Shown: positions 2,124 through 40,929 of the stretch, piece after piece | How the letters are laid out: each line of letters opens with the position of its first letter | Position numbering within the stretch: the stretch's first letter is position 1 | From: Styela clava | Lineage: Eukaryota > Chordata > Ascidiacea > Stolidobranchia > Styelidae | DNA length: 64,000 nt | Assembly (NCBI RefSeq): GCF_964204865.1 | Contig: NC_135260.1 | Span: 3,100,001 to 3,164,000, forward strand | Reading direction: 5' to 3' | Notes under the pieces: generated by a model | Seen by the model: the letters and a program-made list of their open reading frames with translations, nothing else | Database searches by the model: none | Told to the model about the DNA's origin: nothing | Position numbers and translations under genes: made by a program

Positions 2124-2685
2124 AATGCAACAAAATAAAGTAGTATCTCTTGTAATTATTTTACTATAAGCTTTGAACACAAAGAAATGAAAATTTAGTG
2201 GTGCTCCTAAGCAAGGGTACGGGATCCAATTTTAAATTAGTTTCAAAAATAGATTTTTCATATTATTCTGGTGAAAGGAAAGTCAATAAGATGGCTTGAC
2301 AATTTAGGCCCCTCGTCCAGTTATCAGTCCTTGTCAGATATAGGATTCGTTCCGATGCATGGGCTTGACACAAGGTAATCAAAGTGTGGTGGCAAGTGTG
2401 TTCCTAATGCCTAATCCAAACACAGCTCAATCATTATTTCATATTGCACAACTCAAGCTTGTAAGCACACACTCGAAAACCAGAAACATTCTTGCTATAA
2501 TGAATTTTTCAATCGTATATATAGAAGAATTATGTCATGCTGCTTGTGCTGTGTATGCTGGTTGTTCTGGTTCTGTAATTCATGTAAAATGTAGAAAATG
2601 TTTTTCAGAAGTGTAAAATAACTTCAGCTTTACGGCTTCAAGATAAAATGTTTTGATTTTTTTTAAAATCTCTTATACAGAAGGA
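2124..2685. other. 5' flank of gene 1, with a degraded SINE
   Basis: The 90 bases upstream of gene 1 are conserved upstream of genes 4 and 6 (block AGAGATACTRCTTTATTTTG on the coding strand), so the promoter or 5' UTR is probably here. Bases about 2260-2440 look like a decayed reverse copy of the tRNA-derived SINE (GGCCCCTCGTCC, GTCAGATATAGGATT, GTGGTGGCAAGTGTGTTCCTAA). The same decayed copy sits upstream of gene 4 (38320-38480), so it predates the gene duplication. Confidence 0.5.
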
Positions 2686-3422
2686 TTATGTGATGCATGA
2701 GCTGTATATTCTGGCGGGTTCTGGTTCGCTTGAGCTTCTTGTTCTTTTGTCATTTGAGTTTGGTGTCTGCGGGTACGGAGGAACGGCCACTCCTGGTTGA
2801 GGAGGCATTTGTGCACCGGGGTAATATGAAGTTCCTGGCACATATCCTTGAGCAGGTATCATGATGAATTGGCCGTTTGCAAGCTGAACCATTTGTTGTT
2901 GTGGATAAGCAGGGTGAGCTGCGTATACAACCACGCCTTGAGGTTTTTTGCGGCAACAGACACCAGCGCAACAATATGCTGAATGAATGATACAGATATT
3001 CATCCCAGCAAATCCAATGACAGCCATAATAGAATGAACGGCAATGATTCCACCGTTCCCTTTACGTGGGTAAGTGTCTCCAGCACATATCGCAGACATT
3101 ATACAAAGTGTAGCCATGAAGCAAGAAGCTACAATACTGACCGCCATATTCGCATTATAAAAACAAACGGAAGGTTTTCCTCTAGCTTTGAATCCAAGAA
3201 TTCCAGATGCAATTACAACACCGCCGCACCATATTCCGTGAGAAGCATACGTAACGCTATAACGAATTCTGTAATCGTACGTTCTGTTATTCCAAGTACT
3301 ATGATAGACATAAGTCTTCTTTGTGCTTGCGATGATCAACGTCACGATGCACAAAACGACAGATAAAACGCCAAGAACAATTTCAGTAACTCCAAATCGA
3401 TACAAAACAAGTTTGTATTTTT

Positions 3423-3637
3423 TGTTGATATTGTAATATTTGTACTATTTCGTTTTGTCTATTTCTGGCAACACTGCCTGTTAACTTCTTTCATTGTTAT
3501 TGTTTTACGCTTCATTGATTTTGTATCTGCTGCTTCTTGCTTCGGATGATTGCAGCATGGGTGCTGTGCAAGCTAATATATATCTATTCTGATCGTGTAA
3601 TATAAGGTTGTATTATATGATAATAGTCGAATTAACA
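3423..3637 (+). repeat. Left LTR of the copia element
   Basis: 215 bp, starting TGTTGATATTG and ending GTCGAATTAACA. It is matched at 7861-8075 with no difference seen by eye. It should hold the element's promoter; TATATATC occurs near 3579. Confidence 0.93.
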
Positions 3638-3638
3638 T

Positions 3639-3651
3639 TGGTAGCAGAGGA
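3639..3651 (+). promoter_or_regulatory. Primer-binding site, initiator Met tRNA
   Basis: TGGTAGCAGAGGA starts one base after the LTR. It is complementary to the 3' end (…CCTCTGCTACCA) of animal initiator methionine tRNA. Use of the full 3' end contrasts with Drosophila copia, which uses an internal half of the same tRNA. Confidence 0.85.
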
Positions 3652-3653
3652 AA

Positions 3654-6600
3654 ATGACTGCAAAACAACTTCAACCACCAAAGTTTGGTGAAGATTTGAC
3701 CTACATGGAGTGGGTAAATAAACTGGACATGTGGAAAGCGGTGACTGAGATACCGGTGAAAAAACAAGGAATTTTGGTGCGACTTTTGTCTTTAGATGGC
3801 AATTCTAAAGCTGAAAAGGCTGTTTCTGATCTAACAGCGGATGAACTGAATGTGGATGATGGTCTAAGCCTACTTATTGAAAAATTGGATGTTGCTTTCA
3901 AATCAGAGAAGACTGATTTAGCCTATGATGCATATACTGCATTTAATTCCTACACTAGGCCAGCCGGTCTAGCAATGGCTGATTATATATTAGAATTTGA
4001 GCATTTGAATTCTAATTTGGTAAAGTTTGATATGAAATTGCCTGATGCAGTTTTGGCATTCCGAATTATGGATGGTGCACTATTAACTGAAGAACAAAAA
4101 CAGCTTGTATTGACAGTTGGCAGTGATTTAAAATATGAGTCAATGAAATCTGGATTAAAAAGAATTTTTTCAAAACATAATTGTACCGGTAGCATCGGAG
4201 GAAGTTTGTTGTCTTTATCACAAACAAATGATGCATTTGTGTCACAAGGTGCAGCTTCAACTGAACTACCGATACCGGTAACTTCAAGAAGAAGATATAC
4301 TGGGAATACCGGTAACAAGTTTACCAGGAAATCTGATTATCAGGTGAAAAGTAAAAAGGATTTTGATAAAAACATGAATCCAATTGACAGAAATGGCAAT
4401 ATATCAAGATGTTCCATCTGCGACTCAAAAATGCACTGGGCTCGCAAATGCCCTCATCAAAATCGGGAAGTTTTCTGTGCTGATGACTCGGATGATGAAG
4501 AATGTGAAAATGTGCAAATGGCATTAATGACCAATGAAAACTGTCAAGAAATCTTCATTTCAGAAAATGCTGAATATGCTATAGTTGATACCGCATGCAC
4601 AAAAACTGTGGCAGGAAAAACCTGGTTTGAGAAATACATTGAACTTTTGGAGCCTGAGATGCGCGAAAACATCAAGATATTTCCCAGTAGTCGAACCTTC
4701 AAATTTGGAGATGGCCGCACTGTTAATGCTATTAAAAGAGTAGTAATTCCCATTCAAATTGGCCGTAAAATTTTGGAATTGGAAGTGGAAATCATAGACA
4801 CCCATCTTCCATTGCTGATGAGTAAAAGATCTCTGAAGAGAGCAGAAACTCACCTGAATATGAAGAATGATACGGCTATGATGTTGGGACAGGAAATTGC
4901 ACTCCATTTATCCAATAATGGCCACTACACAGTCAAAATACTGCCTAGGAAAAGGCGTTCAAAAGGTCACAAAACTGAAATTTTATTATCAGAAAACGGG
5001 TCAAAAAGTTACAGCAAAAATGATATATTGAAAATTCACAAACAATTTGGGCATGCATCGAAAGAAAATATGAAAAGATTGATAACTAATACTGGAAAAT
5101 ATCGTCCTGAATATAGTCAGATTATAGATGAAACTGTTGATAGATGTGAAATATGCACCAAATATAAAAGGCCTTGTCCACGTCCTGTGGTTGGCTTATC
5201 TTGGGCTACGGATTTCAATCAGACTGTAGCATTGGATCTCCATCAGTTAGAACAAAATGTGTGGTACCTCCATATTGTAGACGAATTTACTCGTTACAGC
5301 AGCGCTGTTGTCATTCATAATAAAAAGACTTCCACGATTGTTGAAAAATTCATGCAACACTGGATTAGCATATTTGGAGCACCAAACAGAGTACTTTCAG
5401 ATAATGGTGGAGAATTTGATTCTGCTGAATTTCATGATATGTGTGAGAATTTTGGCATCAAAATTTCTACTACTCCGGCATATTCTCCATGGAGCAATGG
5501 ACTGTGCGAGCGTCATAACAGAATTCTTTCTGAAATTCTTCTCAAGGTGAGAGATGAAAATAATTGTAATTGGGAAACAGCTCTGGCTTGGGCACTTAGT
5601 GCTAAAAATAGTCTTATCAATACTAAAGGATTTAGCCCTAATCAACTTGTTTTCGGTAGAAGCATCAGACTACCATCTGTTATTCATGAAAATCTTCCAG
5701 CACTAGAAGGAACAAGTACAAGCATGTATGTGGCAAAAAACATATTGGCTCTTCATATTGCTCGGAAAGCATTTATTGAGTCGGAATCATCTGAAAAGAT
5801 TCGAAGGGCACTACGAAAACAAACGAGAGAGACGGTTGATGCCTTCACAAAGGGAGAGTATGTGTATTATAAAAGAGATGAACAACAGAAATGGAAAGGA
5901 CCTGGACGTGTAATTGGTCAAGATGGGCCTTTAATCTTTATTCGGCATGGAGGCCAATGTGTGAAAGTGCATTCTTGCAGAGTCCAACATGTGGCGGAAC
6001 CTACCGAGATGACTATTTTGCCTGATAATTCCAATGACAAAAATAAGGCTCCAATATTACAAACTGCTCAAGCAGATGTTAGTGACGTCAGTGGAGATGA
6101 TTCAAATACGAATGTTACAAACAGGGACGATGACAGTGATATTTCATGTCACTTAGCAAGAGGTAAAATTGTCACATATTCGCATGATGGTATGGATTAT
6201 GAAGTGGAAATTATAAATCGAGCTGGAAAAGCAACTGGAAAATATAAAAATTCTTTCAATGTGAAATATCGATCACCAGAAAGCATTAAGGGAAATACTG
6301 GATATGTTGATTTTGAGCAGGTCGAAAACCTACAAGAAGAACTCCAAGCACCTACAGAAAATGTTCTGGTTACAAAAGATGTTAACTTTGACGACGCAAA
6401 ATTATCAGAGTTAAAAAGTTGGAAAGAAAATAATGTTTATGAAGAGGTTGACAACACTGGACAAATAACTATTTCAGTACGATGGGTCTGTTCTCTAAAA
6501 TCTACAGAAGATGGTGTTGTGCCTAAAGCACGACTTGTGGCAAGAGGCTTTGAGGAAAACAATGACAGTGTCTTAAAAGAATCGCCAACATGTTCTAAAG

Positions 6601-7835
6601 ATTCCCTCCGCTTGCTGTTGGCAATTGTCGCTCAGAAAAAATGGAAATTGAATACCATTGACATAAAGACTGCCTTTCTGCAAGGCGAAAATTTGGATCG
6701 TGAAATATTCCTGGTTCCCCCTAAAGAAGCTGGCTCCAACAAACTCTGGAAACTAAATAAGTGTGTTTATGGACTGGCTGATGCATCTTTGAAATGGTAT
6801 AAAAAGCTCAAAGATTTTATATTGAATAATGGGGCAAAAATGTCATGCGGAGATTCTGCTTTATTTCACCTAAACAGTGATAACAACTTGCATGGAATTA
6901 TGGGAATTCACGTTGATGATATCATTTGGGCTGGAACACAGAATTTTGAAAATACATTTATAACAAGCTTGCGTTCCACTTTTCAGATTAGTCGTGAGAA
7001 AAACGAGGCTTTTAAATATCTTGGTCTTAATATTCAACAAAATAAAACAGCAATAACAGTAGATCAAGAAACATATATTGAGAGTCTTAAAAATTTTACA
7101 TCAAGTTCAAATGAAAATGAGTTGAATGAAAAAGACAGGGATGCATTGAGAGCTATAGTTGGTCAATTGCTTTGGACATCGAATCAAACCCGGCCAGATG
7201 TGAGTTATGATGTCTGCCAACTTGCCACAAATCTAAAAGAAGGCAAACAGAAAGATGTTCATCATGCCAATAAAATAATTAGAAAACTGAAAGCTCGAGA
7301 AATGAAGCTGAAGTATCAATATCTGGGAAAAGACCAATCACTCAGGATTGTGGTATTTGCAGATGCTGCATATGGGAATTTAATTGATGGAGGTAGTCAA
7401 GGTGGACACCTAGTATTTCTAGTTGGAGATGATGACAAATGCTCATTGCTAACATGGCAATCGAAACGGATTCGTAGAGTGGCCAAAAGCACTTTGGCAG
7501 CTGAAACACTTTCACTATCTGACGCCGTGGATAATGCTGTATTTGTTAAGAGCATGCTGTCAGAAATTTATTTTGCAAACTCATTCAATATACCAATTTA
7601 TGTAATGACAGATAATTGCTCACTTCGAGATGCATTATACTCCAGTAAAAATGTTTCCAACAAAAGACTTCGAATTGAAATTGGAATGCTCAAAGAAATG
7701 ATTATGAAGAAGGAAATTTGTGGCGTAGAATGGTTGCAGTCAAAATACCAGTTAGCTGATGTGCTCACAAAGCATGGGGCTTCTTCAGAAAGATTAGTCT
7801 CTATAATTTGTGATGGACTACTTTACCTCTGTTAA
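3654..7835 (+). CDS. Copia Gag-Pol polyprotein
   Basis: 1393 residues in a single frame from ATG to TAA. In order: Gag-like N-terminus; zinc knuckle CX2CX4HX4C (residues 253-266); aspartic protease centred on D312 in VDTACTKTV, where the usual DSG/DTG reads DTA; integrase zinc site H462/H467 and C498/C501; integrase core D528, D583, E619 with 35 residues between the last two; reverse transcriptase with IDIKTAFLQGE and the catalytic HVDD at 1086-1089; RNase H with D1237, E1284 and D1320. The order PR-IN-RT-RH is diagnostic of Ty1/copia (gypsy elements place IN last). Gag and Pol are fused with no frameshift or stop between them, so Gag excess must come from protease processing or splicing, as known for other copia elements. 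No inactivating lesion is visible. Confidence 0.95.
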   Translation: MTAKQLQPPKFGEDLTYMEWVNKLDMWKAVTEIPVKKQGILVRLLSLDGNSKAEKAVSDLTADELNVDDGLSLLIEKLDVAFKSEKTDLAYDAYTAFNSYTRPAGLAMADYILEFEHLNSNLVKFDMKLPDAVLAFRIMDGALLTEEQKQLVLTVGSDLKYESMKSGLKRIFSKHNCTGSIGGSLLSLSQTNDAFVSQGAASTELPIPVTSRRRYTGNTGNKFTRKSDYQVKSKKDFDKNMNPIDRNGNISRCSICDSKMHWARKCPHQNREVFCADDSDDEECENVQMALMTNENCQEIFISENAEYAIVDTACTKTVAGKTWFEKYIELLEPEMRENIKIFPSSRTFKFGDGRTVNAIKRVVIPIQIGRKILELEVEIIDTHLPLLMSKRSLKRAETHLNMKNDTAMMLGQEIALHLSNNGHYTVKILPRKRRSKGHKTEILLSENGSKSYSKNDILKIHKQFGHASKENMKRLITNTGKYRPEYSQIIDETVDRCEICTKYKRPCPRPVVGLSWATDFNQTVALDLHQLEQNVWYLHIVDEFTRYSSAVVIHNKKTSTIVEKFMQHWISIFGAPNRVLSDNGGEFDSAEFHDMCENFGIKISTTPAYSPWSNGLCERHNRILSEILLKVRDENNCNWETALAWALSAKNSLINTKGFSPNQLVFGRSIRLPSVIHENLPALEGTSTSMYVAKNILALHIARKAFIESESSEKIRRALRKQTRETVDAFTKGEYVYYKRDEQQKWKGPGRVIGQDGPLIFIRHGGQCVKVHSCRVQHVAEPTEMTILPDNSNDKNKAPILQTAQADVSDVSGDDSNTNVTNRDDDSDISCHLARGKIVTYSHDGMDYEVEIINRAGKATGKYKNSFNVKYRSPESIKGNTGYVDFEQVENLQEELQAPTENVLVTKDVNFDDAKLSELKSWKENNVYEEVDNTGQITISVRWVCSLKSTEDGVVPKARLVARGFEENNDSVLKESPTCSKDSLRLLLAIVAQKKWKLNTIDIKTAFLQGENLDREIFLVPPKEAGSNKLWKLNKCVYGLADASLKWYKKLKDFILNNGAKMSCGDSALFHLNSDNNLHGIMGIHVDDIIWAGTQNFENTFITSLRSTFQISREKNEAFKYLGLNIQQNKTAITVDQETYIESLKNFTSSSNENELNEKDRDALRAIVGQLLWTSNQTRPDVSYDVCQLATNLKEGKQKDVHHANKIIRKLKAREMKLKYQYLGKDQSLRIVVFADAAYGNLIDGGSQGGHLVFLVGDDDKCSLLTWQSKRIRRVAKSTLAAETLSLSDAVDNAVFVKSMLSEIYFANSFNIPIYVMTDNCSLRDALYSSKNVSNKRLRIEIGMLKEMIMKKEICGVEWLQSKYQLADVLTKHGASSERLVSIICDGLLYLC

Positions 7836-7860
7836 ACTAAAAGTTAAAACAGAGTGAATA

Positions 7861-8075
7861 TGTTGATATTGTAATATTTGTACTATTTCGTTTTGTCTAT
7901 TTCTGGCAACACTGCCTGTTAACTTCTTTCATTGTTATTGTTTTACGCTTCATTGATTTTGTATCTGCTGCTTCTTGCTTCGGATGATTGCAGCATGGGT
8001 GCTGTGCAAGCTAATATATATCTATTCTGATCGTGTAATATAAGGTTGTATTATATGATAATAGTCGAATTAACA
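7861..8075 (+). repeat. Right LTR of the copia element
   Basis: 215 bp, identical by eye to 3423-3637, followed directly by the TTTTT target duplication (8076-8080). Confidence 0.93.
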
Positions 8076-8225
8076 TTTTTCTCTCAGCTTCGTCTGAGGG
8101 GTTGACGTATTCGTTGCCTGCTGGGGTGGCAAAGTAACCTGACTCTGTTGAGGGCTTGCTGTTCCACCCTCTGGTTCAACAGCTTGATCAAGCCTTGAAT
8201 ATAGGCCAGCAGGACATTGAGCCAT

Positions 8226-8927
8226 AATGCAACAAAATAAAGTAGTATCTATTGTAAATATTGTACTTATTACGCTTTAGATACAGAAAAATGAAGTTGA
8301 TTTTCAATCAAGAAAAGGACATCTGTTTTAAAATTAGTTCTTATGATGGATTTTTATATTTATCCAGGAGCTTGCTAGTTATTGCTGTTCTCACCTCAAA
8401 ATGGTTTACTTCTCTCACACTGTGGTAAAGATGACAAATTCTGTTTTAAGCATTTATTCTGATCTATCTATATTATTATGGCCTGCGAACTGTGTGCCGC
8501 GGCCCAATCGTGGGCCACATTTTCTAGTGGGCCTCCAATAAATTTCAATTATGGCAGTGATAACTAACAATAATACCTCTTTAGGTATCACACCTAGAAC
8601 AACTAAAAAATATACAATATAAATATACTGCGGTATAAACATCTATAACACCTGTATAACAACAATGTATCATAAAAATTACTACAACTAACACCAGACT
8701 AGTAAAAGCACTGGAAAGGACATTAGACAATTACCCAATAGTATTGCTAACCCATTTAATACAGAGATGTCGAAAACCAGACTATCTAATTCTCTCCAAT
8801 ATCATTTTGACAATTCTCAGTATTGTTCAAGTGTCCTTGGGTTGGACACCTGGGAATCTCTGTATTTATCCAAACTATGTTTGAAAATATTCACAGATGC
8901 ACTTTGCCTCACATATAACGGTAATCT
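8226..8927. other. 5' flank of disrupted gene 2
   Basis: Homologous to 38610-39080: shared blocks include TGCTAGTTATTGCTGTTCTC and AATTTCAATTATGRCAGTGAT. So the flank was duplicated together with the genes. Around 8480-8540 is a GTGGGCC-rich patch that looks like a hAT fragment. No gene seen. Confidence 0.5.
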
Positions 8928-9606
8928 GGATAGGATAGGATTTACATATTTATCCCGGGGGAGAGGAAAGCCGATAAGACGGCTTTTCCATATGGCGAAC
9001 CACGGCCTCTCGTCCGGTTACCATTCCAAGTCGGGTATGGGATTAGTTATATTGTTTGTTTTCGGAGGCATGGACTTGGTGGTGGAGGAAGCCGTAACCC
9101 AGTGTTTTTCAACCGGGGTGCCGCGGCACACCGGTGTGCCGTAAAATAATGTCAGGGGTGCCGTGGGAAATTCTCCAATTTGTGTGTCTATGCGTTGTAG
9201 CGCAGAATGTGGCAGCAGTAGGTGGCGATTTGCCTTTTTTCCTTGTTTTATTTGATTACTATTCAAGATGTCCAATTCAACATCTTTCTTCAAAGTTAAA
9301 AAAGCTTATATTAACAACATAACACTTAAATTGTGAATATTAGGTCTTTTCCCCACATTTAATGCTGGGGGTGTGCCGCGGGATTTTCTCATTGAAAAAG
9401 GTGTGCCTTGGCTCGAAAAAGGTTGAAAAACACTGCCGTAACCGACCAGCGGTTACGTGAACCACCCAACGACGGTGAGGAGTCCAGCAATCCTCTCGCA
9501 CATAACCATCCCTGCATGGGTTCGAACCTGCGAACCCACGCAGAGTAATTAGAGGTGCGGTGGCGAGCGTATTCCTAACGCTTAGCCCGTTGAGCCACAC
9601 CGCCGC
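8928..9606 (-). mobile_element. tRNA-derived SINE, reverse copy, interrupted by a hAT element
   Basis: Read on the minus strand it runs from a head with Pol III box A (GTGGCTCAACGGG) and a box B region (GGTTCGAACCC) near 9600-9515, through a conserved body, to a tail GGGATAAATATGTAAATCC plus (TATCC) repeats at 8928-8955. The hAT element 9100-9435 interrupts the body. Removing it leaves about 335 bp, the full length of the family. Confidence 0.85.
9100..9435. mobile_element. Non-autonomous hAT element nested in the SINE
   Basis: 336 bp with perfect 15-bp inverted termini (CAGTGTTTTTCAACC) and a perfect 8-bp target duplication CCGTAACC (9092-9099 and 9436-9443), diagnostic of the hAT superfamily. 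Subterminal repeats of GGTGTGCCG/GTGCCGCGG are present. There is no transposase frame. Confidence 0.92.
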
Positions 9607-10708
9607 GCCAGTATTTTGTTACCAAAAAAGTTTGGACGCTGATTTTGCCTTAGATTACAAGTTCAAGAAGACATGTTGAAAAATTGTTGCCCATATGTAG
9701 ATAGATAGATAGTTTATTTTGAAAACTCCACAATATGACAATACAAACAAATAAAAAATGGAGAATTCTGGAGAGCGCGCAAAACCTTCAAAAAAGTTTA
9801 AAACAAGATGAGTATCATGTGCCCGCTCACCAACACGCATTCACAAAAAAAAAACACGAACTTTGTTAAACAAGGCTTGGGCCAAAAATGAACATACAGA
9901 AAATACGCGAATGTGATAAACTTCCGGGCTGTTGTTAACTTTTAAAATACCCAGGCTAATAAGGACCAATTAGATCTGATACAATGACAACGTAAGTAGG
10001 TGTAATGTAATGTGATAAGGTGACGAAAAGGTCAAAAACCATGAAAACTACATTGATTTGGCATTGATGACAATGTGATACAGCGAATCAAGATACATAT
10101 AAACAAATCAAAACAATGCTGGTAAATTCTGCGCTCAGGCAAATAATTATAAAAACAATTATCAGGAAAACACTAACTGACTAATCACACGTAAACATGT
10201 AGGCCCATATATGTTTATGGCCCATAATAATGTTGTCAGTCCTCTCATAAGTTTGTCCTCTGTAGCAGCTTATTTGTGATACACAAAAAAGTTCTATAAA
10301 TAGAACATTCAGACATTTCATATAAAATTCTTATCAAACGGTTTTTGTTCATATATCAAAGACTATGCATTCAGAATTCAGACTTTACATTATTTCAACA
10401 AAACAAATTAAATGTCCTTTAATGACTAATAATGATAAATATTAGGCCTAACGGTGCTAAACTGACAGACTGAACAACACTCTCAAAGCATCAGGTCTAC
10501 TTCTTTTTTTAGTTTAAAAAAAATCGGTTGATACCTAAATCTGCAATTTCAGAATTTACAGTAAAGGTATGCTGAAGAGCTTCTGAACAATGTACCGGTA
10601 TCTATTAAATGCAATATTATTCCAACCTTTCTTCCAGTTCTGCAGTTACAAATATTCAAGTTCAAAACACATGCCACTCGGCAGCTCGACGAAAAACACA
10701 AAAAAATG
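9607..10708. other. Non-coding host sequence left of the foldback element
   Basis: A TAGATAGATAGATAG microsatellite at about 9698-9714 begins what may be a reverse LINE or SINE 3' end (a similar one is near 60745). Bases about 10300-10708 are homologous to 39090-39390 (blocks AACAAAACAAATTAAATGTCC and TTATTCAAGTTYAAARCAYGCCAC). No gene recognised. Confidence 0.45.
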
Positions 10709-10999
10709 GTGCAGAAAACCTCTGTGAAGCTAGCAGCAAAACACGAAATTGTGACTGACAGAATCGCAGAAAATACCCACGCGTACAATTAAATGTTCCC
10801 AATGATTTTTAAAGAAGAAAGTGTATATTTTGATTAGTTTCACAATAGCAATTAAAGCAAAACAATCATTAACTACACTCCTCGTATTGTTAATATATAG
10901 TAAACAAGCTAAAGCGACTGTTACAGTGCACAAAATTTTTTTATAATTCTTTGAGAGATGTTTAAAAATGACTGAATTTTCGTCGTGTAACATGGTCGT

Positions 11000-13900
11000 T
11001 TCATGAAAACCTCCAATAAAGGCGGCATTGCAACACCATTGGTGAAAAGTAGAAACCTCAAAGATTCGATTTCATTATGTCAGAACAGTCTCAGCACGTT
11101 TTGACTTGACCATATATAATACTAAACATAGCGTATATTCTTCAATTTTTAAAACAATGTATATACAACAAATTTGAAACTGATTTTGTATTTCAACTAA
11201 ATTTACTGGATAGTTCATCAAAGAAGATATTTTTCTCTTTGTCACACAACAATAATGCATTTCATTAAAAGTAGAATAAGTTGAGGAAAGTCTGAAATAT
11301 CGAAAAAAAATTTACGCCCTCTTGTCGATTCTTTGATAAATTTCACAAAATTATCGTTTTTGAAAGGGCGATTTCTCAAAAACCGCCAATAAAGGCAGCA
11401 CTACGACACATTCGAAAAAAAGCAGATACCCTATAGATTCGATTTTAATATGTCAGAACAGTAGCAGCACGTTTTAACTGGCAATACATGATACCAAACA
11501 TAGCATATAATTTTCAATTTTATTAACTATGTAGATGTAAAATAATTAAAAACGGTTTGGTATTTCAACTAAATTTACTGGATAATTCATCAAATACTTT
11601 TCTCTCTTGGCCATATATCACAACTGTACGTTCATTAAACTTGGAATAAGTGGCAAATCTGAAAATAACAAAAAATGATTTTACGCCCTCTTGTTGATTT
11701 TTTTCGGGATTTCAAAAAAATATCGTTTTTGAAAGGGCGATTTCTCAGAAACCGCCAATAAAGGCAGCACTACGACACATTCGGAGAAAAGCAGATACCT
11801 TATAGATTTGATTCCATTATGTCAGAACAGTAGCAGCATGTTTTGACTTGGCCATATATAATACCAAACATAGCGTGTATTCAAAAAGTTATAAACAATG
11901 CAGAAGTAACATATTCAAAAAACGTTTGGTATTTCAACTAAATTTACTAGACAAATTATCAAACATCTTCTTTGGCCATACATATATACTGTACGTTCAT
12001 TAAACTTGGAATAAGTTGCGGAAAGTATGAAATACGAAAAAGCATTTTTTGTCCTCTTGCGGATTATTTTCAAAATTTCAAAAAATTATCGTAATTGAGA
12101 TAGCGATTTCTCGAAAACCGCCAATAAAGGCAGCACTACGACACATTTGGAGAGAAGCAGATACCTTATAGATTCGATTTTAATAAGTCCGAACAGTAGC
12201 AGCACGTTTTGAGTTGGCCATATATAATACCAAACATAGCGTATAATTTTCAATTTTATCAACTATGCAGACGTAACAAATTTAAAAACGGTTTGGTATT
12301 TCAACTAAATTTCCTAGATAATTTATCAAACATCTTTCTCTCTTGGACATACATATATACTGTATGTCCATTGAACTTAGAATGAGTTGCGGAAAGTATG
12401 AAATAACGGAAAATCATATTTCGCCTTCTTGTTGATTATTTTCAAATTTTCGAAAAATTATCGTTTTTGAAATAGCGATTTCTCAAAAACCGCCAATAAA
12501 GGCAGCAATACGACACATTCGGAGAAAAGCAGATACCTTATAGATTCGATTTTATTATGTCAGAACAGTAGCAGCACGTTTTGACTTGGCCATATATAAT
12601 ACCAAACATAGCGTATAATTTTCAATTTTATCAACTATGTAGATGTAACATATTTAAAAATGGTTAGGTATTTCAACTTAATTTACTGGATAATTCATCA
12701 AACACTTTTCTCTCTTGGTCATACATCAAAACTGTATGTTCATTAAACTTGGAATAAGACGGCGAATCCTGAAATAACAAAAAAAAATGATTTGACGCCA
12801 TCTTGTGGATTTTTTTCGAAGTTTTTAAAAAAATATCGTTTTTGAAAGGGCGATTTCTCAAAAACCGCCAATAAAGGCAGCACTCCGACACATTCGGAGT
12901 AAAGCAGATACCTTATAGATTTGATTTCATTATGTCAGAACTGTAGCAGCACGTTTTGACTTGGCCATATATAATACCAAACATAGCGTGTATTCAAACT
13001 TTTATGAACAATGCAGACGTAACATATTTAAAAACGGTTTGATATTTCAAATAAATTTTCTAGATAATTTATCAAACATCTTTTTCTCTTGAACATACAT
13101 ATATACTATACGTTCATTAAACTTGGAATAAGTTGCGGAAAGTATAAATACCAAAAAGCATTTTACGTCCTCTTGTGGATTATTTTCAAAATTTCAAAAA
13201 ATTATCGTTATTGAAATAGCGATTTCTCGAAAACCGCCAATAAAGGCAGCATTACGACACATTTGGAGAGAAGCAGATACCTTATAGATTTGATTTTAAT
13301 AAGTCAGAACAGTAGCAGCACGTTTTGACTTGGCCATATATAATTCCAAACATAGCGTATATTATCAATTTTATTGAAAAATGTAGATGTGACATATTTA
13401 AAAACGAATTGGTATTTCAACTAAATTTACTGAAAAATTCATCAAATACTTTCTTCTCTTGGGTATACAACAAAACTGTACGTTCATTAAACTTGGAATT
13501 AGTGTGCAAATTTTAAAATGCCAAAAAATGATTTGACGCCCTCTTGTGGATTTTTTTCGAAGTTTTTAAAAAAATATCGTTTTTGAAAGGGCGATTTCTC
13601 AAAAACCGCCAATAAAGGCAGCACTACGACACATTCGGAGAGAAGCAGATACCTTATAGATTCGATTTTAATAAGTCAGAACAGTAGCAGCACGTTTTGA
13701 CTTGGCCATATATAATTCCAAACATAGCGTATATTTTCAATTTTATTAAAAAATGTAGATGTGACATATTTGAAAACGGTTTGGTATTTCAACTAAATTT
13801 ACTGAAAAATTCATCAAATACTCTCTTCTCTTGGGTATACAACAAAACTGTACGTTCATTAAACTTGGAATTAGTGTGCAAATTTTAAAATGCCAAAAAT

Positions 13901-16900
13901 GATTTGACGCCCTCTTGTGGATCCTTTTCGGAATTTCAAAAAATTATCGTTTTTGAAAGGGCGATTTCTCAAAAACCGCCAATAAAGGCAGCACTACGAC
14001 ACATTCGGAGTAAAGCAGATACCTTATAGATTTGATTTCATCATGTCAGAACAGTAGCAGCTCATTTTGACTTGGTCATATATAATACCAAACATAGCGT
14101 GTATTTAAACTTTTATAAACAATGCAGACGTAACATATTTAAAAACTGTTTGGTATTTCAACTAAATTTTCTAGATAATTTATCAAACATCTTTTTCTCT
14201 TGGACATACATATATACTGTACGTCCATTGTACTTGGAATGAGTTGCGGAAAGTATGAAATAACGGAAAATCATGTTTCGCCTTCTTGTTGATTATTTTC
14301 AAATTTTCGAAAAATTATCGTTTTTGAAATAGCGATTTCTCAAAAACCGCCAATAAAGGCAGCACTACGACACATTCGGAGAGAAGCAGATACCTTATAG
14401 ATTCGATTTTAATAAGTCAGAACAGTAGCAGCACGTTTTGACTTGGCCATATATAATTCCAAACATAGCGTATATTTTCAATTTTATTAAAAAATGTAGA
14501 TGTGACATATTTGAAAACGGTTTGGTGTTTCAACTAAATTTACTGAAAAATTCATCAAATACTCTCTTTTCTTGGGTATACAACAAAACTGTACGTTCAT
14601 TAAACTTGGAATTAGTGTGCAAATTTTAAAATGCCAAAAATGATTTGACGCCCTCTTGTGGATCCTTTTCGGAATTTCAAAAAATTATCGTTTTTGAAAG
14701 GGCGATTTCTCAAAAACCGCCAATAAAGGCAGCACTACGACACATTCGGAGTAAAGCAGATACCTTATAGATTTGATTTCATCATGTCAGAACAGTAGCA
14801 GCTCATTTTGACTTGGTCATATATAATACCAAACATAGCGTGTATTTAAACTTTTATAAACAATGCAGACGTAACATATTTAAAAACTGTTTGGTATTTC
14901 AACTAAATTTTCTAGATAATTTATCAAACATCTTTTTCTCTTGGACATACATATATACTGTACGTCCATTGAACTTGGAATGAGTTGCGGAAAGTATGAA
15001 ATAACGGAAAATCATGTTTCGCCTTCTTGTTGAATATTCCAAATTTTCGAAAAATTATCGTTTTTGAAATAGCGATTTCTCAAAAACCGCCAATAAAGGC
15101 AGCACTACGACACATTCGGAGAAAAGCAGATACCTTATAGATTCGACTTTATTATGTCAGAACAGTAGCAGCACGTTTTGACTTGGCCATATATAATACC
15201 AAACATAGCGTATAATTTTCAATTTTATCAACTATGTAGATGTAACATTTTTAAAAACGGTTAGGTATTTCAACTTAATTTACTGGATAATTCATCAAAC
15301 ACTTTTCTCTCTTGTTCATACATCAAAACTGTATGTTCATTAAACTTGGAATAAGACGGCGAATCCTAAAATAACAAAAAATGATTTTACGCCCTCTTGT
15401 GGATTTTTTTCCAATTTTTATAAAAAAAAATATCGTTTTTGATAGGGCGATTTCTCAAAAACCGCCAATAAAGGCAGCACTACGATACATTCGGAGTAAA
15501 GCAGATACCTTATAGATTTGATTTCATTATGTCAGAACTGTAGCAGCACGTTTTGACTTGGCCATATATAATACCAAACATAGCGTGTATTCAAACTTTT
15601 ATAAACAATGCAGACGTAACATATTTAAAAACGGTTTGGTATTTCAAATAAATTTCCTAGATAATTTATCAAACATCTTTTCTCTTGAACATACATATAT
15701 ACTATACGTTCATTAAACTTGGAATAAGTTGCGGAAAGTATAAAATACCAAAAAGCATTTTACGTCCTCTTGTGGATTATTTTCAAAATTTCAAAAAATT
15801 ATCGTTATTGAAATAGCGATTTCTCGAAAACCGCCAATAAAGGCAGCATTACGACACATTTGGAGAGAAGCAGATACCTTATAGATTCGATTTTAGTAAG
15901 TCAGAACAGTAGCAGCACGTTTTGACTTGGCCATATATAATTCCAAACATAGCGTATATTTTCAATTTTATTAAAAAATGTAGATGTGACATATTTAAAA
16001 ACGGTTTGGTATTTTAACTAAATTTACTGGAAAATTCATCAAATACTTTCTTCTCTTGGGTATACAACAAAACTGTACGTTCATTAAACTTGGAATTAGT
16101 GTGCAAATCTTAAAATGCCAAAAAATGATTTGACGCTCTCTTGTGGATCCTTTTCGGAATTTCGAAAAATTATCGTTTTTGAAAGGGCGATTTCTCGAAA
16201 ACCGCCAATAAAGGCACCATTACGACACATTTGGAGAGAAGCAGATACCTTATAGATTCGATTTTAATAAGTCATAACAGTAGCAGCACGTTTTGACTTG
16301 GTCATATATGATACCAAACATAGCGTGAATTTAAACTTTTATAAACAATGCAGACGTAACATATTTAAAAACAGTTTGGTATTTCAACTAAATTTACTGG
16401 ATAATTCATCAAACATCTTTTTTTTTGGACGTACATCAATAATGAACGTTCATTAAACTTGGAATAAGTTGCAAATTGTATAAAACAACAAAAAAATGAC
16501 TTACGCCCCATAGTAATTTTTTTTTAATATCTCGAACATACCGTTTTTGGAGTGGCGATTTCCCCAAAACCGCCAATAAAGGCAGCACTACGACACATTC
16601 GAAGAAAAGCAGATACTCCATAGATTCGATTTTTATATGTCAGAACAGTAGCAGTATATTTTGACTTGGCCATATATAATACACAATATAGCGTGTATTC
16701 ACAATTTTATAAACAGTGTAGACGTAACATATTTTAAAAAGATTTTGTATTTTAACTAAATTTACTGGATAATTCATCAAATATATATATTTTTTAGACA
16801 TACATCAATACTGTACGCTCATCAAACTTGGAATAAGTTGCAAATCGTATAAAACAACAAAAAATGTCTTACCCCCTATATTCATTTTTTTTTTAATTTA

Positions 16901-17490
16901 TCAAACATACCGTTTTTGGTAACGAGTTTCCAAAAACCGCCAAAAAAGGCAGCAGTACGACACATTCGGAGAAAAGCAGATACCTCATATATTCAATTCT
17001 ATTATATCATAACAGTAGCAGCACGTTTTGACGAGACCATATATAATACCCAATATAGCGTATATTCTCCAGTTTTAAGAACAATGTGGACGAAACAAAT
17101 TTAAAAAGGGTTTGTGTTTCAACTTAAGTTGCTGGATTAGTGATCAAATATATTTTTCTCTTTGTCGCACATCGATATTGTACGTCTATTGGACTCAGAC
17201 TAAGTTGCGGAATGTATAAAATAATAAAAATCATTTTACGCTCTCTTGTGGATTCTTTTCATAATTTCAAAGAAATATGGTTTTTAAAAGGCGATTTCTC
17301 GAAAACCGCCAATAAAGGCAGCATTACAACACATTCGGAGAAAAGCAGATACCTTATAGATATGATTTTATTATGTCAGAACAGTAGCAGCTCGTTTTGA
17401 CATGGCCATATATGATACCAAATATATCGTATATATTTTCAATTATTTAAATTGCGTAGATGTTCACATATTTTAGAAGGCTTCATTATT
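11000..17490 (+). repeat. Left arm: about 18 tandem copies of the ~370-bp repeat
   Basis: The marker block ACCGCCAATAAAGGCAGCAC recurs near 11010, 11382, 11751, 12119, 12489, 12866, 13236, 13607, 13978, 14347, 14717, 15087, 15464, 15830, 16201, 16570, 16937 and 17305, a period of 366-377. Units fall into subtypes (for example TTGAAAGGGCG versus TTGAAATAGCG before the marker). Near-identical stretches occur 741 bp apart (13690-14430 against 14431-15010), a two-unit repeat, and about 2598 bp apart (12420-13190 against 15018-15790), a seven-unit repeat. Outer units are more diverged than inner ones. Confidence 0.93.
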
Positions 17491-18649
17491 CACTATTCAA
17501 TTTCATTATTCATCAAAATTCTTGTTTATAACAGATTTAAGGAAAGGTTTTAAGTCAATTATTCAAGTTTCAAGGTTACTGAATATTTAAGCTATTAGCT
17601 TCAAAAAGAGTTATTCCATGCACAATACATTTAAATGAGTTGAGGATTTTATAAAATACCTCAACGACATCTGTCTTTTTTTTCTTTTCTGCCTATTTAA
17701 TTTACTTATCAGTAATTTCTCCAAATCTACCAATATAGGCAGAATTACTCCTTATTCAGAAAAAAAGAAGAACACTTAGAAATTTGATTTTATTGTGGCA
17801 GAACCAGTAGCAACACTTTTCGATTTGGCTATAGCATATATTCTATGATTGTCAAACAATGTAGATGTAACATACTCCAAAGACCAACTGCATTTCAAAT
17901 ATTTCTAACAGACAATTACGCAATTATCTTTACTTAGTTTGTCTTAATTCATAAAATTTGTAAGTAGTCTCGAGTATTATATCCAAAATTTTAAAAATGT
18001 TCGATATTTTTCTAAGTGTAATTTCTCAAATAAAAAAATTGGTCAATAAAGGATGCTTTAGGAGTCAATGACGTAGAGGGAAAAAAACGCCATAACATAA
18101 CAAGCACGTTTTGGCATAGCTATTAAGGATGAAATTCCTCTGAAAGAGTTAAATAAATGAGAAATCACTTTGAAATTCCTCATTTATTAGGTACATTTCA
18201 CAGCATTTCCATAAGCATGATTAGTGAATTCTATGTTATACCAGCTTGTTGCAGATCATTTTGAAAAGGAATCCTCTTTTAGACAACGATCATCAGACAT
18301 TGGGGTGATAAAATAACCATGTTACTATAGAACAGAAAAATAACAACATGCTCTAACATGTCCACACGTAATGTCTATTTTTTTCAAGGTAATTTCAATT
18401 CAATTTCAAGATAAAAACTAATCTAGAGTATATTTTTAAAGTTTTGAACAGTAATGCTGAAAGATATTTTGAAGATATCGTGAATTATATCTATAGCTGA
18501 TTTAACCAGCAGGGAATTCGCAATATTTGCATGTTGAAAATTAAACTTTTAGTATTTTACAGCGTCGTAAAATGAAAAACAATCTCATTTAAAATAGTAC
18601 ATATAAGAAAACACATACAAGAAACAGCCTAAAAATAATAAAATACAGA
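17491..18649. repeat. Spacer between the two arms, with decayed repeat units
   Basis: Two strongly diverged forward units can be traced, with CTACCAATATAGGCAG near 17709 and GGTCAATAAAGGATGC near 18047, followed by GTAGCAACAC and AAGCACGTTTTGGC blocks. The remainder, 18130-18650, shows no match to the unit and no gene. It is the centre of the foldback. Confidence 0.65.
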
Positions 18650-21600
18650 AATTTTGAGCAAAATTTTTGAGAAATCGCTATTTCAAAAACGATCATTTTT
18701 CGAAAATTTGAAAATAATCAACAAGAAGGCGAAACATGATTTTCCGTTATTTCATACTTTCCGCAACTCATTCGAAGTTCAATGGACGTACAGTATATAT
18801 GTATGTCCAAGAGAAAAAGATGTTTAATAAATTATCTAGGAAATTTAGTTGAAATACCAAACCGGTTTTAAATATGTTACGTCTGCATTGTTTATAAAAG
18901 TTTGAATACACGCTATGTTTGGTATTATATATGGCCAAGTCAAAACGTGCTGCTACTGTTCTGACATAATGAAATCAAATCTATGAGGTATCTGCTTTTC
19001 TCCGAATGTGTCGTAGTGCTACCTTTATTGGCGGTTTTTGAGAAATCGCCCTTTCAAAAACGATATTTTTTTGAAATTCCGGAAAAAATCCACAAGAGGG
19101 AGTAAAATTATTTTTTCTTATTTTTAGATTTGCCACTTATTTCAAGTTTAATGAACGTACAGTTGTGATATATGGCCAAGAGAGAAAAGCTTTTGGCTTT
19201 TTAAGATTTGCACACTAATTCCAAGTTTAATGAACGTACAGTTTTGTTGTATACCCAAGAGAGGAAAGTATTTGATGAATTATCCAGTAAATTCAGTTGA
19301 AATACCAAACCGTTTATAAATATGTCATATCTACATAGTTAATAAAATTGAAAATATACGCTATGTTTGGAATTATATATGGCCAAGTCAAAACGTGCTG
19401 CTACTGTTCTGACATATTAAAATCGAATCTATAAGGTATCTGCTTTTTTCCAAATGTGTCGTAATGCTGCCTTTATTGGCGGTTTTCGAGAAATCGCTAT
19501 TTCAATAACGATAATTTTTTGAAATTTTGAAAATAATCCACAAACGGACGTAAAATGCTTTTTGGTATTTTATACTTTCCGCAACTTATTCCAAGTTTAA
19601 TGAACGTATAGTATATATGTATGTCCAAGAAAAGAAGATGTTTGATAATTTGTCTAGTAAATTTAGTTGAAATACCAAACGTTTTTTGAATATGTGACGT
19701 CTGCATTGTTTATAACTTTTTGAATACACACTATGTTTGGTATTATATATGGCGAAGTCAAAACGTGCTGCTACTGTTCTGACATAATGAAATCAAATAT
19801 ATAAGGTATCTACTTTTCTCCGAATGTGTCGTAGTGCTGCTTTTATTGGCGATATTTGAGAAATCGCCCTTTCAAAAACGATATTATTTTGAAATTCCGA
19901 AAAAAATCCTCAAGAGGGCGTAAAATGATTTTTTCGGTATTTCCTACTTTCCGCAACTCATTCCAAGTTTATTGGACGTACAGTATGTATGTATGCCAAA
20001 AGAAAATGATTTTTGATAAATTATCTAGTAAATTTAGTTGAAATACCAAACGGTTTTTCAATATGTTACGTCTGCATTGTTTATAACATTTTCAATACAC
20101 ACTATGTTTGGTATCATATATGACCAAGTCAAAACGTGCTGCTACTGTTATGACATAATGGAATCAAATCTATAAGGTATCTGCTTTTCTCCGAATGTGT
20201 CGTAGTGCTGCCTTTATTGGAGGTTTTTGAGAAATCGCCCTTTCAAAAACGATATTTTTTTAAAAACTTCTAAAAAAATCCACAAGAGGGCGTCAAATCA
20301 TTTTTTGGCATTTTAAGATTTGCACACTAATTCCAAGTTTAATGAACGTACAGTTTTGATGTATGACCAAGAGAGAAAAGTGTTTGATGAATTATCCAGT
20401 AAATTTAGTTGAAATACTTGACCGTTTTTAAATATGTTACATCTACATAGTTGATAAAATTGAAAATTATATGCTAGGTTTAGTATTAAATATGGCCAAA
20501 TCAAAACGTGCTGCTACTGTTCTGGTTTGGTGAAATCGAATCTTTAACGTATCTGCTATTCTCCAAAAGTGTCGTATTGCTGCCTTTATTGGCCATTTTC
20601 CGAGAAATCGTCACTCCAAAAACGGCATGTTTGGGAAATCAAAAAATTATATATAGGTTGTAAGACATTTTTCATTGTTTTATACAATTTGCATCTTATT
20701 CCAAGTTTAATTAACACACAGTATCGGTGTTTGAAAAAGTAAGAAAACGGAATATTACGATATTAGGGGAGTTTATTTGAAATACCAAACATTTTTAAAA
20801 TATGTGAACATCTACGCTATTCAAATAATTGAGATATACGCTATGTTTGGTGTTATAAATGGCCAAGTCAAAACGTGCTGCTACTGTTATGGTATAGTGA
20901 AGTAGAATCTAAAAGGTATTTGCTTTTTTCTGAATGTGTCGTAATGCTGCCTTTATTGGCGGTTTTCGAGAAATCGCCCTTTCAAAAACGATTATTTTTT
21001 TGAATTCAGAAAAGAACCCATTATAGAAAGCGTAAAATGTTTTTTTTTATATTTTAAACTTTCCCAATTAATTCTTAGTTTAATAAACGTACAGTATTCA
21101 TTTGTGACAAAGAGGAAAATATATTTGATCAATTTTCCAGCAGCATCAGTTGAAATACAAATCCATCTTAAATTTGTTACGTCGACATTGTTTATAAAAC
21201 TGAGAATACACGCTATTTTGGTATTATATATAGCCAAGTCAAAACATGCTGCCACTGTTTTGTTATAGTGAAATCAAATCTATAGGGTATATACTTTTCT
21301 CCGAATGTGTCGTAGTGCTGCCTTTATTGGCAGTTTTCGAGAAATTGCCCTTCCAAAATTTTTTTTGGTATTTTATACCTTTCTTCTGCAACTCATTCTA
21401 AGTTTAATAGACGTACAGTATTAATGTGTTCCAAAGAGAAAAATATATATTTTATCAATTGTTCAGCAAATTTAGTTGACATTCAATTCCTTTTTAATTT
21501 TGTTTCGTCTACATTGTTCATAAAATTGAAGAGTATACGCTATGTTTGGTATTATATATGGCAAAGTCAAAACATGCTGCTACCGTTCTGACATAATAAA

Positions 21601-22430
21601 ATTGAATCTATAAGGTATGTGCTTTTCTCTGAATGTGTCGTGATGCTGCCTTTATTGGCGGTTTTTGAGAAATCACCAATCCAAAAACGATAATTTTCGA
21701 AATTCTCAAACTAATTCAAGGGGGTGCGCAAAATTTTTTTTAATATTACTTTATACTTTCTGAAACTTATTCTAACTTTAATAGACGTACAGTATTGATG
21801 TGCGACAAAGAGAAAAAAATATTTAATCAATTATCCTGCAACTTTAGTTGAAATACAAACCTTTTTTAATATGTTACGTACCTTTGTTTTAAAAATCGAG
21901 GAATATACGCTATGTTTGGTATTATAAATGGCCAAGTCAAAACGTGCTGCTACTGTTATGGTATAGTGAAGTCGAATCTAAAAGGTATTTGCTTTTATCC
22001 GAATATGTCGTAGTGCTGCCTTTATTGGCGGTTTCCGAAAAATCACCATTTTAAAAACGATAATTTTTTGTAATCCAGGACAGAATCCACTAGGAGTCGC
22101 AAATGTTTTTTTGCTGTTTTATACTTCCCGCAACGTATTCCAAGTTTAAAAGTTGTACAGTATTAATGTGTGACAAAGAGAAAATATTTTGATATTTTAT
22201 CCATTATCTAGCAAATTTAGTTGAAATACAAAATCAATTTTAAATTTGTTACGTCCATGCCGTTATTAAAATTTAGATTACACGATATGTTTGGTAATAT
22301 ATATGGTCAAGCCAAAACGTACTGCTTCTGTTCTGTTATAGAAAAATCGAATTTATAGGGTATCTGCTTTTCTACAAATGTGTCGTGGTGCTGCCTTTAT
22401 TGGCGGTTTTCGAGGAATCGAGGTTCCGAA
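18650..22430 (-). repeat. Right arm: about 10 inverted copies of the ~370-bp repeat
   Basis: The reverse marker TGCCTTTATTGGCGGTTTT recurs near 19022, 19468, 19840, 20209, 20579, 20945, 21319, 21649, 22017 and 22392. Spacing is about 370 except 446 at 19022-19468, where part of a unit (AAGTTTAATGAACGTACAG) is duplicated, and 330 at 21319-21649 (deletion). The same subtypes occur as in the left arm: the block around 18720-18830 mirrors 14280-14200 and 15000-14940. Confidence 0.93.
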
Positions 22431-22707
22431 AAGGATCATTTTCCGAAACTTTGTATTTGCGGAATACCTGAAAATTCATTTTTCGCTTAGTTAGACTTTT
22501 TTTAAACACTATTTTCTTGTTAAATTTATTGTATTCATTCAGTTTAAAGATTTTTCATCTATTTTCGTGCCAATATTATATTTTGATCAGCATTTTCAAT
22601 TTTCATATTTACCTATAAGTGAACATTATATGCGCGTGGAACCTATATTCAATGTGTAAAAATATTCTGGCTGAAAGTGCTGCTAGCTTCACAGTGGTGT
22701 GCAGAAA

Positions 22708-22963
22708 CGCCCACTTCTGCGATTTGTTTATTGAACGGGGGACTTTAACTTGCGATTGCCGGCAGGACAAACGTCTGACTAATCTTGAAATATATATCAG
22801 TATCGATACACTCCTAAAGTTCATACTGCTTTGATATCAGACTTACCTTTTGCTAGGCTTTTTTAAACTCTCAGAGATTTTTGCAGTTTTCCGAAGAAGT
22901 CTAGCACAGTAATGTGTTTACTTCACTGCACTGGTGATTTTGACGTCATTTGTTTTGTTTCTC
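22708..22963. other. Host sequence right of the foldback element
   Basis: Continues the homology to 39400-39530 that stops at 10708 on the other side (CGCCCACTT; GTCTGACTAATCTTGAA; GATACACTC). This places both flanks as one formerly continuous sequence. Confidence 0.65.
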
Positions 22964-23783: not shown

Positions 23784-24121
23784 GCGGCGGTGTGGCTCAA
23801 CGGGCTAAGCGTTAGGAATACGCTCGCCACCGCACCTCTAATTACTCTGCGTGGGTTCGCAGGTTCGAATCCCATGTAGGGATGGTTATGTGCGAGAGAA
23901 TTGCTGGACTCCTCGCCGTCGTTGGGTAGTTCACGTAACCGCTGGTCGGTTACGGCTTCCTCCACCACCAAGTCCATGTTTCCGAAAACAAACAATATAA
24001 CTAATCCCATACCCGACTTGAAATGTTAACCGGACGAGAGGCCGTGGTTCGCCATATGGATAAGCCGTCTTATTGGCTTTCCTCCGCCCCGGGATAAATA
24101 TGTAAATCCTATCCTATCCTA
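23784..24121 (+). mobile_element. tRNA-derived SINE, full length
   Basis: About 338 bp. Box A-like GTGGCTCAACGGG at 23792, perfect box B GGTTCGAATCC at 23862-23872, a family-specific body (ACGAGAGGCCGTGGTTCGCC) and a tail ending CCTATCCTATCC. It is 5'-complete. Compared with the 45869 copy it has an 8-base duplication (GTTCGCAG) in front of box B. Confidence 0.9.
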
Positions 24122-32469: not shown

Positions 32470-32792
32470 GATAGGATAGGATTTACATATTTATCCCGTT
32501 GGAGAGGAAAACCGATAAGACGGCTTATACACATGGCGAACCACGGCCTCTCGTCCGGTTACCATTACAAGTCGGGTATGGGATTAGTTATATTGTTTGT
32601 TTTCGGAAGCATGGACTTGGTGGTGGAGGAAGCCGTAATCGACCAGCGGTTACGTGAACCACCCAACGACGGCGAGGAGTCCAGCAATCCTCTCGCACAT
32701 AACCACCCCTGCATGGAATTCGAACCTGCGAACCCACGCAGAGTAATTAGAGGTGCGGTGGCGAGCGTATTCCTAACGCTTAGCCCGTTGAG
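32470..32792 (-). mobile_element. tRNA-derived SINE, reverse, truncated at the box A end
   Basis: Tail (ATAGGATAGGATTTACATAT) at the left, body and box B region intact. It stops inside box A (…TAGCCCGTTGAG) and joins unrelated sequence at 32793, so the Pol III promoter is incomplete. Confidence 0.85.
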
Positions 32793-39089: not shown

Positions 39090-39540
39090 TGCCAAAAGGT
39101 TTTTGTTCGTATATCAAATGATTACACATTACGTTATTTCAACTAAATAAATTAAATGTCCCTTGACAAGGACAAACAATGACAAATATTATCCCTGACT
39201 GTGTTAAACTGACCAATACTTCCTTTTTTAGTCTAAAAAAAAATGGGTTACTGAATTCAGAAATCTGTAATCACCAAATGCTGAAAAGAGCTTTTGAACT
39301 AATATTATTCTGTTATTCCAGCATTTTTTCCAGTAACAATTATTCAAGTTTAAAGCATGCCACTGGCAGACTGGACCAAAAACACAAACTGATGCAAAAA
39401 CGCCCACTTTTTGACTTCATTGAACTGCTGAAACACAGCCTTAGGCTAAAACTTATTGTTGCCGACATGACGGATGTCTGACTAATCTTGAATTTATACT
39501 GATATATTGTTGATACACTCTGAATTTCATACTGAAATTT
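39090..39540 (+). other. Related empty site of the foldback insertion, copy A
   Basis: The first part matches 10300-10708 and the second part matches 22708-22840. They meet at GATGCAAAAACGCCCAC, with no foldback sequence between. It serves as a diverged reference for the pre-insertion locus. No gene seen. Confidence 0.7.
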
Positions 39541-40775: not shown

Positions 40776-40929
40776 TATTAGAATGAATGCTTGGGTAAAA
40801 ATTAAAAAACAGAATTTGTCAGAATTACTAAATTGAGAAAAAATTAACTTAAAAAATTAACCACTTTTCTGTAATGAAAGCATAAATAGTACAATATTTA
40901 CGAGAGATACTACTTTATTTTGTTGCACT

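What the first reader, a model, noticed from the sequence alone, without database searches (positions are those of the whole stretch)
10718..22698. A 12-kb foldback-like transposon made of opposed 370-bp tandem repeats
Seen: about 18 forward and about 10 inverted copies of one ~370-bp unit, enclosed by ~21-bp inverted termini with one mismatch and a perfect 9-bp duplication GTGCAGAAA. Known: 9-bp duplications mark Mutator-like and Foldback elements, and Drosophila FB arms are built of tandem repeats, though those units are much shorter. Inference: what looks like a satellite block moved, or grew, inside a transposable element. Such an element could both seed satellite arrays and promote inversions.
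Basis: partly seen in the sequence, partly recalled or inferred. Interest (0 to 1): 0.9.

Follow-up and report, generated by a model that had tools for sequence, protein, structure and literature searches.

The report
Transposon carrying opposed satellite repeat arrays
A 12-kb stretch of eukaryotic DNA is a jumping element that carries two opposed blocks of one 370-base repeat, and a related stretch in the same window still shows the site without it; close relatives of this design are known in fruit flies and a flour beetle, so it is an unusual variant and not a new kind.

Summary
10718-22698 is an 11,981-bp insertion with 21-bp inverted ends (20/21) and a perfect 9-bp target duplication. A diverged paralogous empty site lies in the same window (39084-39534), with one copy of the 9-mer. 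Inside: 17 full forward units, one truncated, one decayed, a 1.15-kb centre, 10 inverted units; none found elsewhere in the window. No open frame of 120 aa or more. Best reading: a non-autonomous transposon, probably of the Mutator/Foldback/Rehavkus group; its left end matches the published Drosophila FB4 terminus at 12 of 20 bases in register. It is not a textbook Foldback: between ends and arms lie 267 bp (left) and 179-267 bp (right) of terminal sequence, unrelated to each other. Two abrupt array edges lie in matching phase, so the arms may come from an inversion inside one array, but unit F01 argues against that. Tetris and Rehavkus-1_TC also carry satellite-like units in inverted termini. 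The whole genome could not be searched, so copy number, host and transposase are unknown.

The parts
10709..10717 (.). left target-site duplication GTGCAGAAA
   Evidence: single-copy counterpart ATGCAAAAA in the paralogous empty site
10718..10738 (+). left 21-bp terminal inverted repeat
   Evidence: 20/21 match to the right end; only two pattern matches in the window, none in 100 shuffles
10739..11005 (+). left subterminal domain (no unit found; no similarity to the right subterminal domain above shuffles)
11006..17517 (+). forward array: 17 full ~370-bp units F01-F17 and truncated F18 (17302-17517)
   Evidence: TRF, BLAST, profile
17518..18668 (+). centre: decayed unit at 17727-17932, otherwise no convincing unit; no Pfam match in six frames (17523-18668)
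18669..22410 (-). inverted array: 10 units R10 (inner) to R01 (outer), R03 and R09 partial, extra partial at 19040-19194
22411..22498 (-). weak, decayed partial unit at the outer edge of the inverted array
   Evidence: E=0.0028; BLAST of the innermost ~50 bp
22499..22677 (-). right subterminal domain without units
22678..22698 (-). right 21-bp terminal inverted repeat
22699..22707 (.). right target-site duplication GTGCAGAAA
39084..39534 (+). paralogous empty site: aligns to 10326-10717 joined to 22708-22828, single 9-mer ATGCAAAAA at 39392-39400
   Evidence: right flank alone scores 35 vs shuffle maximum 19, left 82 vs 23 (500 shuffles each)

Best explanation
A non-autonomous cut-and-paste DNA transposon that inserted, with a 9-bp target duplication, into one paralogous copy of a segment of a CD20-like gene cluster. 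A transposase supplied from elsewhere, most likely of the Mutator/Foldback/Rehavkus group, would recognise the 21-bp ends. Each internal unit may carry a sub-site (TAGCAGCAC, also in the right end), so the arrays could act as extra binding sites. The satellite-like array was probably mostly diverged when the element inserted, and it has also been reshuffled more recently in blocks of 2 and 7 units, as unequal exchange would do. The opposed orientation probably arose by rearrangement inside the element, perhaps an inversion within one array. Shown: ends, TSD, empty site, array anatomy, block duplications. Inferred: transposase class, sub-sites, relative dates, inversion.
For: TSD and TIR. Empty-site paralog with one 9-mer. 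Units found only in the element within the window. No ORF of 120 aa or more and no Pfam match in the centre (arrays and terminal domains not scanned), hence non-autonomous. 9-bp TSD is in the MULE (8-11) and Rehavkus (9) range given in PMC6446971. FB4 terminus printed in PMC9682801 matches the left end 12/20 and the right end 11/20 in register from base 1; of 127,960 window 20-mers 77 reach 12 and 389 reach 11; 216 of 200,000 shuffled left ends reach 12; control ends (P, hobo, roo) match ours at 0-6 of 20. Unit positions 1-120 are more conserved among 14 units that I chose as divergent (0.85 vs 0.73; 4 of 2000 block permutations as good), and block 81-100 holds TAGCAGCAC, intact in 19 of 27 units. 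Units 17-22% apart vs 1/30 in TSD+TIR: P 0.027-0.005 if equally old. Lag-2 units 99%, lag-7 units 95-99% identical.
Against: No transposase and no second copy could be examined. The first base of the end is A, while most arthropod MULE ends are said to carry conserved G/C in the first three bases (PMC13359780 passage). The FB4 comparison was prompted by memory, so its odds are post hoc. The TIR-unit motif match is weak: the right end scores 9.5 and 93 of 2000 shuffled right ends reach 9; the left end scores only 8, which 358 of the same 2000 reach. The single TIR mismatch may predate insertion, and the 1/30 estimate has a 95% interval of 0.1-17%, whose top meets the forward-unit divergence.
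Confidence: 0.72

Rival explanations
1. The opposed arms come from an inversion inside one ancestral directly repeated array: R01-R10 then F01-F19 were continuous, and the F part plus the centre flipped. The element was then a plain short-TIR transposon with one satellite array, and looks foldback only secondarily.
For: Two array edges fade (R01-R05 outer, F15-F19 inner) and two are abrupt (F01 outer, R10 inner). The abrupt ones are in matching phase: the unit start was set at F01, and R10 ends at model position 371 of 372; both junctions lie at a short A run. Distance from the edge correlates with identity to consensus better in the un-inverted order (rho 0.59) than for two separate arrays (0.47) or the order F01-F17 then R01-R10 (-0.10). 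F and R units interleave in the tree (8 changes, shuffled mean 8.4, 245 of 500 as low).
Against: F01 would have been an interior unit but is as diverged as edge units (84% to consensus, long branch), while R10, at the other break, is not. The F part alone shows no significant gradient from its inner edge (rho 0.20, p 0.43; R alone 0.82, p 0.004). The consensus rests on 17 forward and 10 inverted units, which favours forward units. Phase agreement has roughly a 3% chance by my own estimate (no call). The order test is not decisive.
Confidence: 0.4
2. A true Foldback history: arms are ancient terminal inverted repeats that expanded internally, with outer domains diverged beyond recognition and unequal unit gain and loss.
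For: Opposed arms with unit heads facing outward on both sides; FB4-like end; Rehavkus-1_TC and Tetris have arrays in inverted termini.
Against: Outer domains unrelated (264 vs 224 bp compared), although units deeper in have best matches of 76-96% and the 21-bp ends match 20/21; colinearity of R06-R10 with forward units no better than permuted order (1802 of 5000).
Confidence: 0.35
3. Assembly artefact: chimeric fold-back read or misjoined satellite contigs.
For: Repetitive arrays are assembly-prone; lag-2 units are 99% identical, so unit number could be miscounted.
Against: Arms are not near-identical mirror images: best inverted-forward unit identity is 96%, and R01-R05 have best matches of 76-82%. 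TIR, TSD and empty site are independent of the array.
Confidence: 0.04
4. A satellite array inserted by a non-transposon route (e.g. re-integration of an extrachromosomal circle) that happens to sit between short inverted sequences.
For: Units are satellite-like.
Against: 21-bp TIR at exact boundaries plus perfect 9-bp TSD and empty site; the array does not reach the junctions. No Rfam family at gathering threshold in the window and only seven chance-like hits in the element (E 1.3 to 8.5, no hammerhead), so no retrozyme signature.
Confidence: 0.03

Closest known systems
Rehavkus-1_TC of Tribolium castaneum (three passages of PMC10218199; Rehavkus table row and section 8 of PMC6446971)
   Same: ~9.5-kb DNA transposon, satellite monomers (164-bp TCsat23) in inverted termini in unequal numbers (mostly five and eight); Rehavkus listed with 9-bp TSD.
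   Different: Unit 164 bp vs ~370; Rehavkus is listed with a PHD-finger transposase and TIRs of 26-400 bp; here no ORF of 120 aa or more, 21-bp TIR, about 18 and 10 units.
Tetris of Drosophila virilis (PMC4079207; abstract and sections 10, 11, 16 part 1 seen)
   Same: Non-autonomous, 8-10-bp TSD, tandem ~220-bp units in opposed arms, units 87% alike inside complete elements, array growth by unit duplication; authors suggest the Mutator superfamily.
   Different: Tetris TIRs (up to 1,735 bp) have an inverted outer flanking domain of up to 866 bp; two alleles of one copy have three and four units in the left arm; here the terminal domains are unrelated and there are about 29 units.
Drosophila FB/FB4 (end sequence in one passage of PMC9682801)
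   Same: End in register 12/20; opposed repeat arms and 9-bp TSD (recalled for FB).
   Different: FB sub-repeats are tens of bp and its TIRs begin at the terminus (both recalled).
Tm1 of root-knot nematodes (PMC3169594, abstract and passages)
   Same: Mostly 9-bp TSD, arms with variable tandem repeats, non-autonomous copies, Phantom-like Mutator transposase in some members.
   Different: ~14-bp repeats.
Galileo (PMC4168063 seen as a listing; remarks in PMC4079207 section 16)
   Same: Tandem repeats in arms with additional transposase-binding sites.
   Different: P superfamily.

Membership tests
TIR DNA transposon | terminal inverted repeats at exact boundaries | tested here: met
TIR DNA transposon | target-site duplication and empty site | tested here: met
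TIR DNA transposon | further copies in the genome | not tested
   The genome search unanswered 13 times; only one copy in the window
Mutator-like (MULE) | 8-11-bp TSD | tested here: met
   9 bp; range from PMC6446971
Mutator-like (MULE) | MULE DDE transposase in the element or a sibling | tested here: inconclusive
   none in the centre; siblings not searchable
Mutator-like (MULE) | conserved G/C in the first three terminal bases | tested here: inconclusive
   ends begin ACC; trend stated for most arthropod MULEs
Foldback (FB) | long TIRs beginning at the terminus and built of tandem repeats | tested here: not met
   21-bp TIR, then unrelated domains; arrays internal
Foldback (FB) | FB-type terminal sequence | tested here: inconclusive
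   12/20 in register, 77 of 127,960 window 20-mers as good; post hoc
Rehavkus | 9-bp TSD | tested here: met
   family value
Rehavkus | satellite in or next to the TIR | tested here: inconclusive
   arrays on both sides, but 267 and 179-267 bp away from the 21-bp ends
Rehavkus | PHD-finger transposase | not testable with these tools
   no autonomous copy reachable
Rehavkus | TIR 26-400 bp | tested here: not met
   21 bp; range
Retrozyme/hammerhead satellite | hammerhead ribozyme in the unit | tested here: not met

The most novel reading that the evidence does not exclude
A short-TIR transposon carrying one satellite array became foldback-shaped through a phase-matched inversion inside the array, and each unit carries a copy of a transposase sub-site that keeps part of the unit conserved; foldback architecture would then be a secondary product of satellites inside transposons, not of terminal-repeat growth.
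Probability: 0.25. Interest if true: 0.6.

Novelty: new variant of a known kind. Interest (0 to 1): 0.42.

Why it matters
How satellites and transposons feed each other, and how foldback elements arise, is still argued. This locus offers an element with large units, a probable order of events (unit divergence before insertion, with younger block duplications) and an in-window empty site. It also suggests an alternative route to the foldback shape that sibling copies could test at once.

Tried and rejected
Rejected: retrozyme or hammerhead satellite; assembly fold-back; extended TIR beyond 21 bp; a recognisable transposase in the centre; mirror or higher-order colinearity of R06-R10 with the forward array (not significant); inverted units as a separate lineage. 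Nothing found: the end pattern and a 19-base unit pattern in viral contigs (0 each); plasmids, distant mode, first 8,000 of 11,981 bases (none). A five-term literature query (four required, with PHD finger): 0 papers. Other literature searches. Dropped before counts: the unit matrix, tree and gradients use 27 units; F18, F19, the extra partial at 19040-19194 and the outer partial at 22411-22498 were left out, while partial R03 and R09 were kept. The conservation test used 14 of the 27 units, picked by me as divergent. Pfam was run on six frames of the centre only (17523-18668), not on the arrays or terminal domains.

Full report
What is there. The window is eukaryotic by content: a cluster of CD20-like genes (of two scanned, one reaches the Pfam cut-off narrowly, 28.2 vs 27.9 bits, the other is below it at 23), a copia retrotransposon and an ornithine-cyclodeaminase/mu-crystallin gene. 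Host unknown. At 10718-22698 sits an 11,981-bp block bounded by 21-bp inverted ends (20/21) and a perfect 9-bp direct repeat. The end pattern with up to 3 mismatches has two matches in the window, both at these ends, and none in 100 shuffles.

Insertion shown inside the window. When the flanks are joined, 10326-10717 plus 22708-22828 aligns with 39084-39534, where the 9-mer is single (ATGCAAAAA at 39392-39400, 7/9 to the TSD). Left flank alone scores 82 (shuffle maximum 23) and right flank alone 35 (maximum 19), 500 shuffles each. The element therefore entered one of two diverged paralogs, or left the other precisely.

Anatomy. Left end, 267 bp without units, 17 full forward units plus a truncated and a decayed one, a 1.15-kb centre, 10 inverted units with an extra partial, a weak outer partial, 179 bp without units, right end. 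The two terminal domains (264 and 224 bp compared) show no similarity beyond base 21 (276 of 500 shuffles score as well). No unit was found elsewhere in the window (E up to 1e-3). No open frame of 120 aa or more lies inside, and six frames of the centre have no Pfam match at E up to 1. No Rfam family reaches threshold in the window.

History of the array. Mean identities are 83% forward-forward, 78% inverted-inverted and 80% between arms. TSD plus TIR differ at 1 of 30 positions; the chance of at most one difference at 17-22% divergence is 0.027-0.005, so most unit divergence is probably older than this insertion. This rests on few sites: the 95% interval of 1/30 is 0.1-17%, and the TIR mismatch may be older than the insertion. 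Younger growth is visible: F08-F09 and F10-F11 are 99% identical, F05-F07 and F12-F14 95-99% (long high-identity blocks at lags 741 and 2599 bp). Arms are not separate lineages: the label needs 8 changes on the tree, shuffled mean 8.4.

Origin of the opposed arms. Edges fade at the outer end of the inverted array and the inner end of the forward array; the other two edges are abrupt and in the same phase at an A run. Undoing an inversion of F01 through the centre gives one continuous array with faded edges (rho 0.59 against 0.47 for separate arrays). Against it, F01 is strongly diverged while R10 is not, and the forward part alone has no significant gradient. Five-unit colinearity between arms is not better than permuted. 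I keep the inversion beside a true Foldback history as an open rival, not as a result.

Function of the units. Positions 1-120 are better conserved than the rest in 14 chosen units (0.85 vs 0.73; 4 of 2000 permutations). Block 81-100 contains TAGCAGCAC, intact in 19 of 27 units, present in the right end and, but for its last base, in the left. The motif match alone is weak (93 of 2000 shuffled right ends reach 9, observed 9.5; the left end scores 8). This would fit extra transposase-binding sites as discussed for Galileo in PMC4079207 (section 16 part 1). Inference.

Comparison. Tetris (PMC4079207: abstract and sections 10, 11 and 16 part 1) and Rehavkus-1_TC (three passages of PMC10218199; PMC6446971 passages and section 8) already show satellite-like units in opposed arms of transposons with 8-10-bp or 9-bp TSDs. 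Tm1 (PMC3169594, abstract and passages) shows arms of ~14-bp repeats and a Phantom-like transposase. FB4's end as printed in PMC9682801 (one passage) matches our left end at 12/20 in register. PMC8277862 (passages) links FB4's repetitive arms to template switching. PMC13359780 (passages) gives the G/C trend of MULE ends, which ours does not fully follow. So the kind is known; the variant features are ~370-bp units, about 29 of them, and arms that stop short of unrelated terminal domains.

Limits. The own genome could not be searched, so copy number, autonomous partner and host are open. One locus in one assembly cannot exclude miscounted units.

Noticed in passing
window 3423-8077: A copia-type retrotransposon (RVT_2 and rve domains) with identical 217-bp terminal stretches, a 1,396-aa stop-to-stop open frame and a probable TTTTT duplication interrupts a CD20-like gene copy (2595-3422 continues at 8075-8302): apparently a very young insertion.
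   Followed up: partly
window 9100-9435: A ~336-bp element with perfect 15-bp inverted ends (CAGTGTTTTTCAACC) and an 8-bp duplication (CCGTAACC), hAT-MITE-like by recalled terminus, sits inside a copy of a ~330-bp dispersed repeat (other copies or pieces at 23784-24118, 32470-32792, 45870-46201, 51608-51840, 54568-54654).
   Followed up: partly
window 1230-3444, 34516-35397, 37368-38306, 40886-41762, 43868-44890, 50355-51500: Cluster, in both orientations, of CD20-like (MS4A-like by recall) genes or pseudogenes, 78-92% alike in DNA, with a more distant member at 50355.
   Followed up: no
window 10718-22698: CpG observed/expected is 1.23 inside the element against 0.81 outside, and its GC is 31%; the units are not CpG-depleted, odd for an old repeat if the host methylates repeats.
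   Followed up: no
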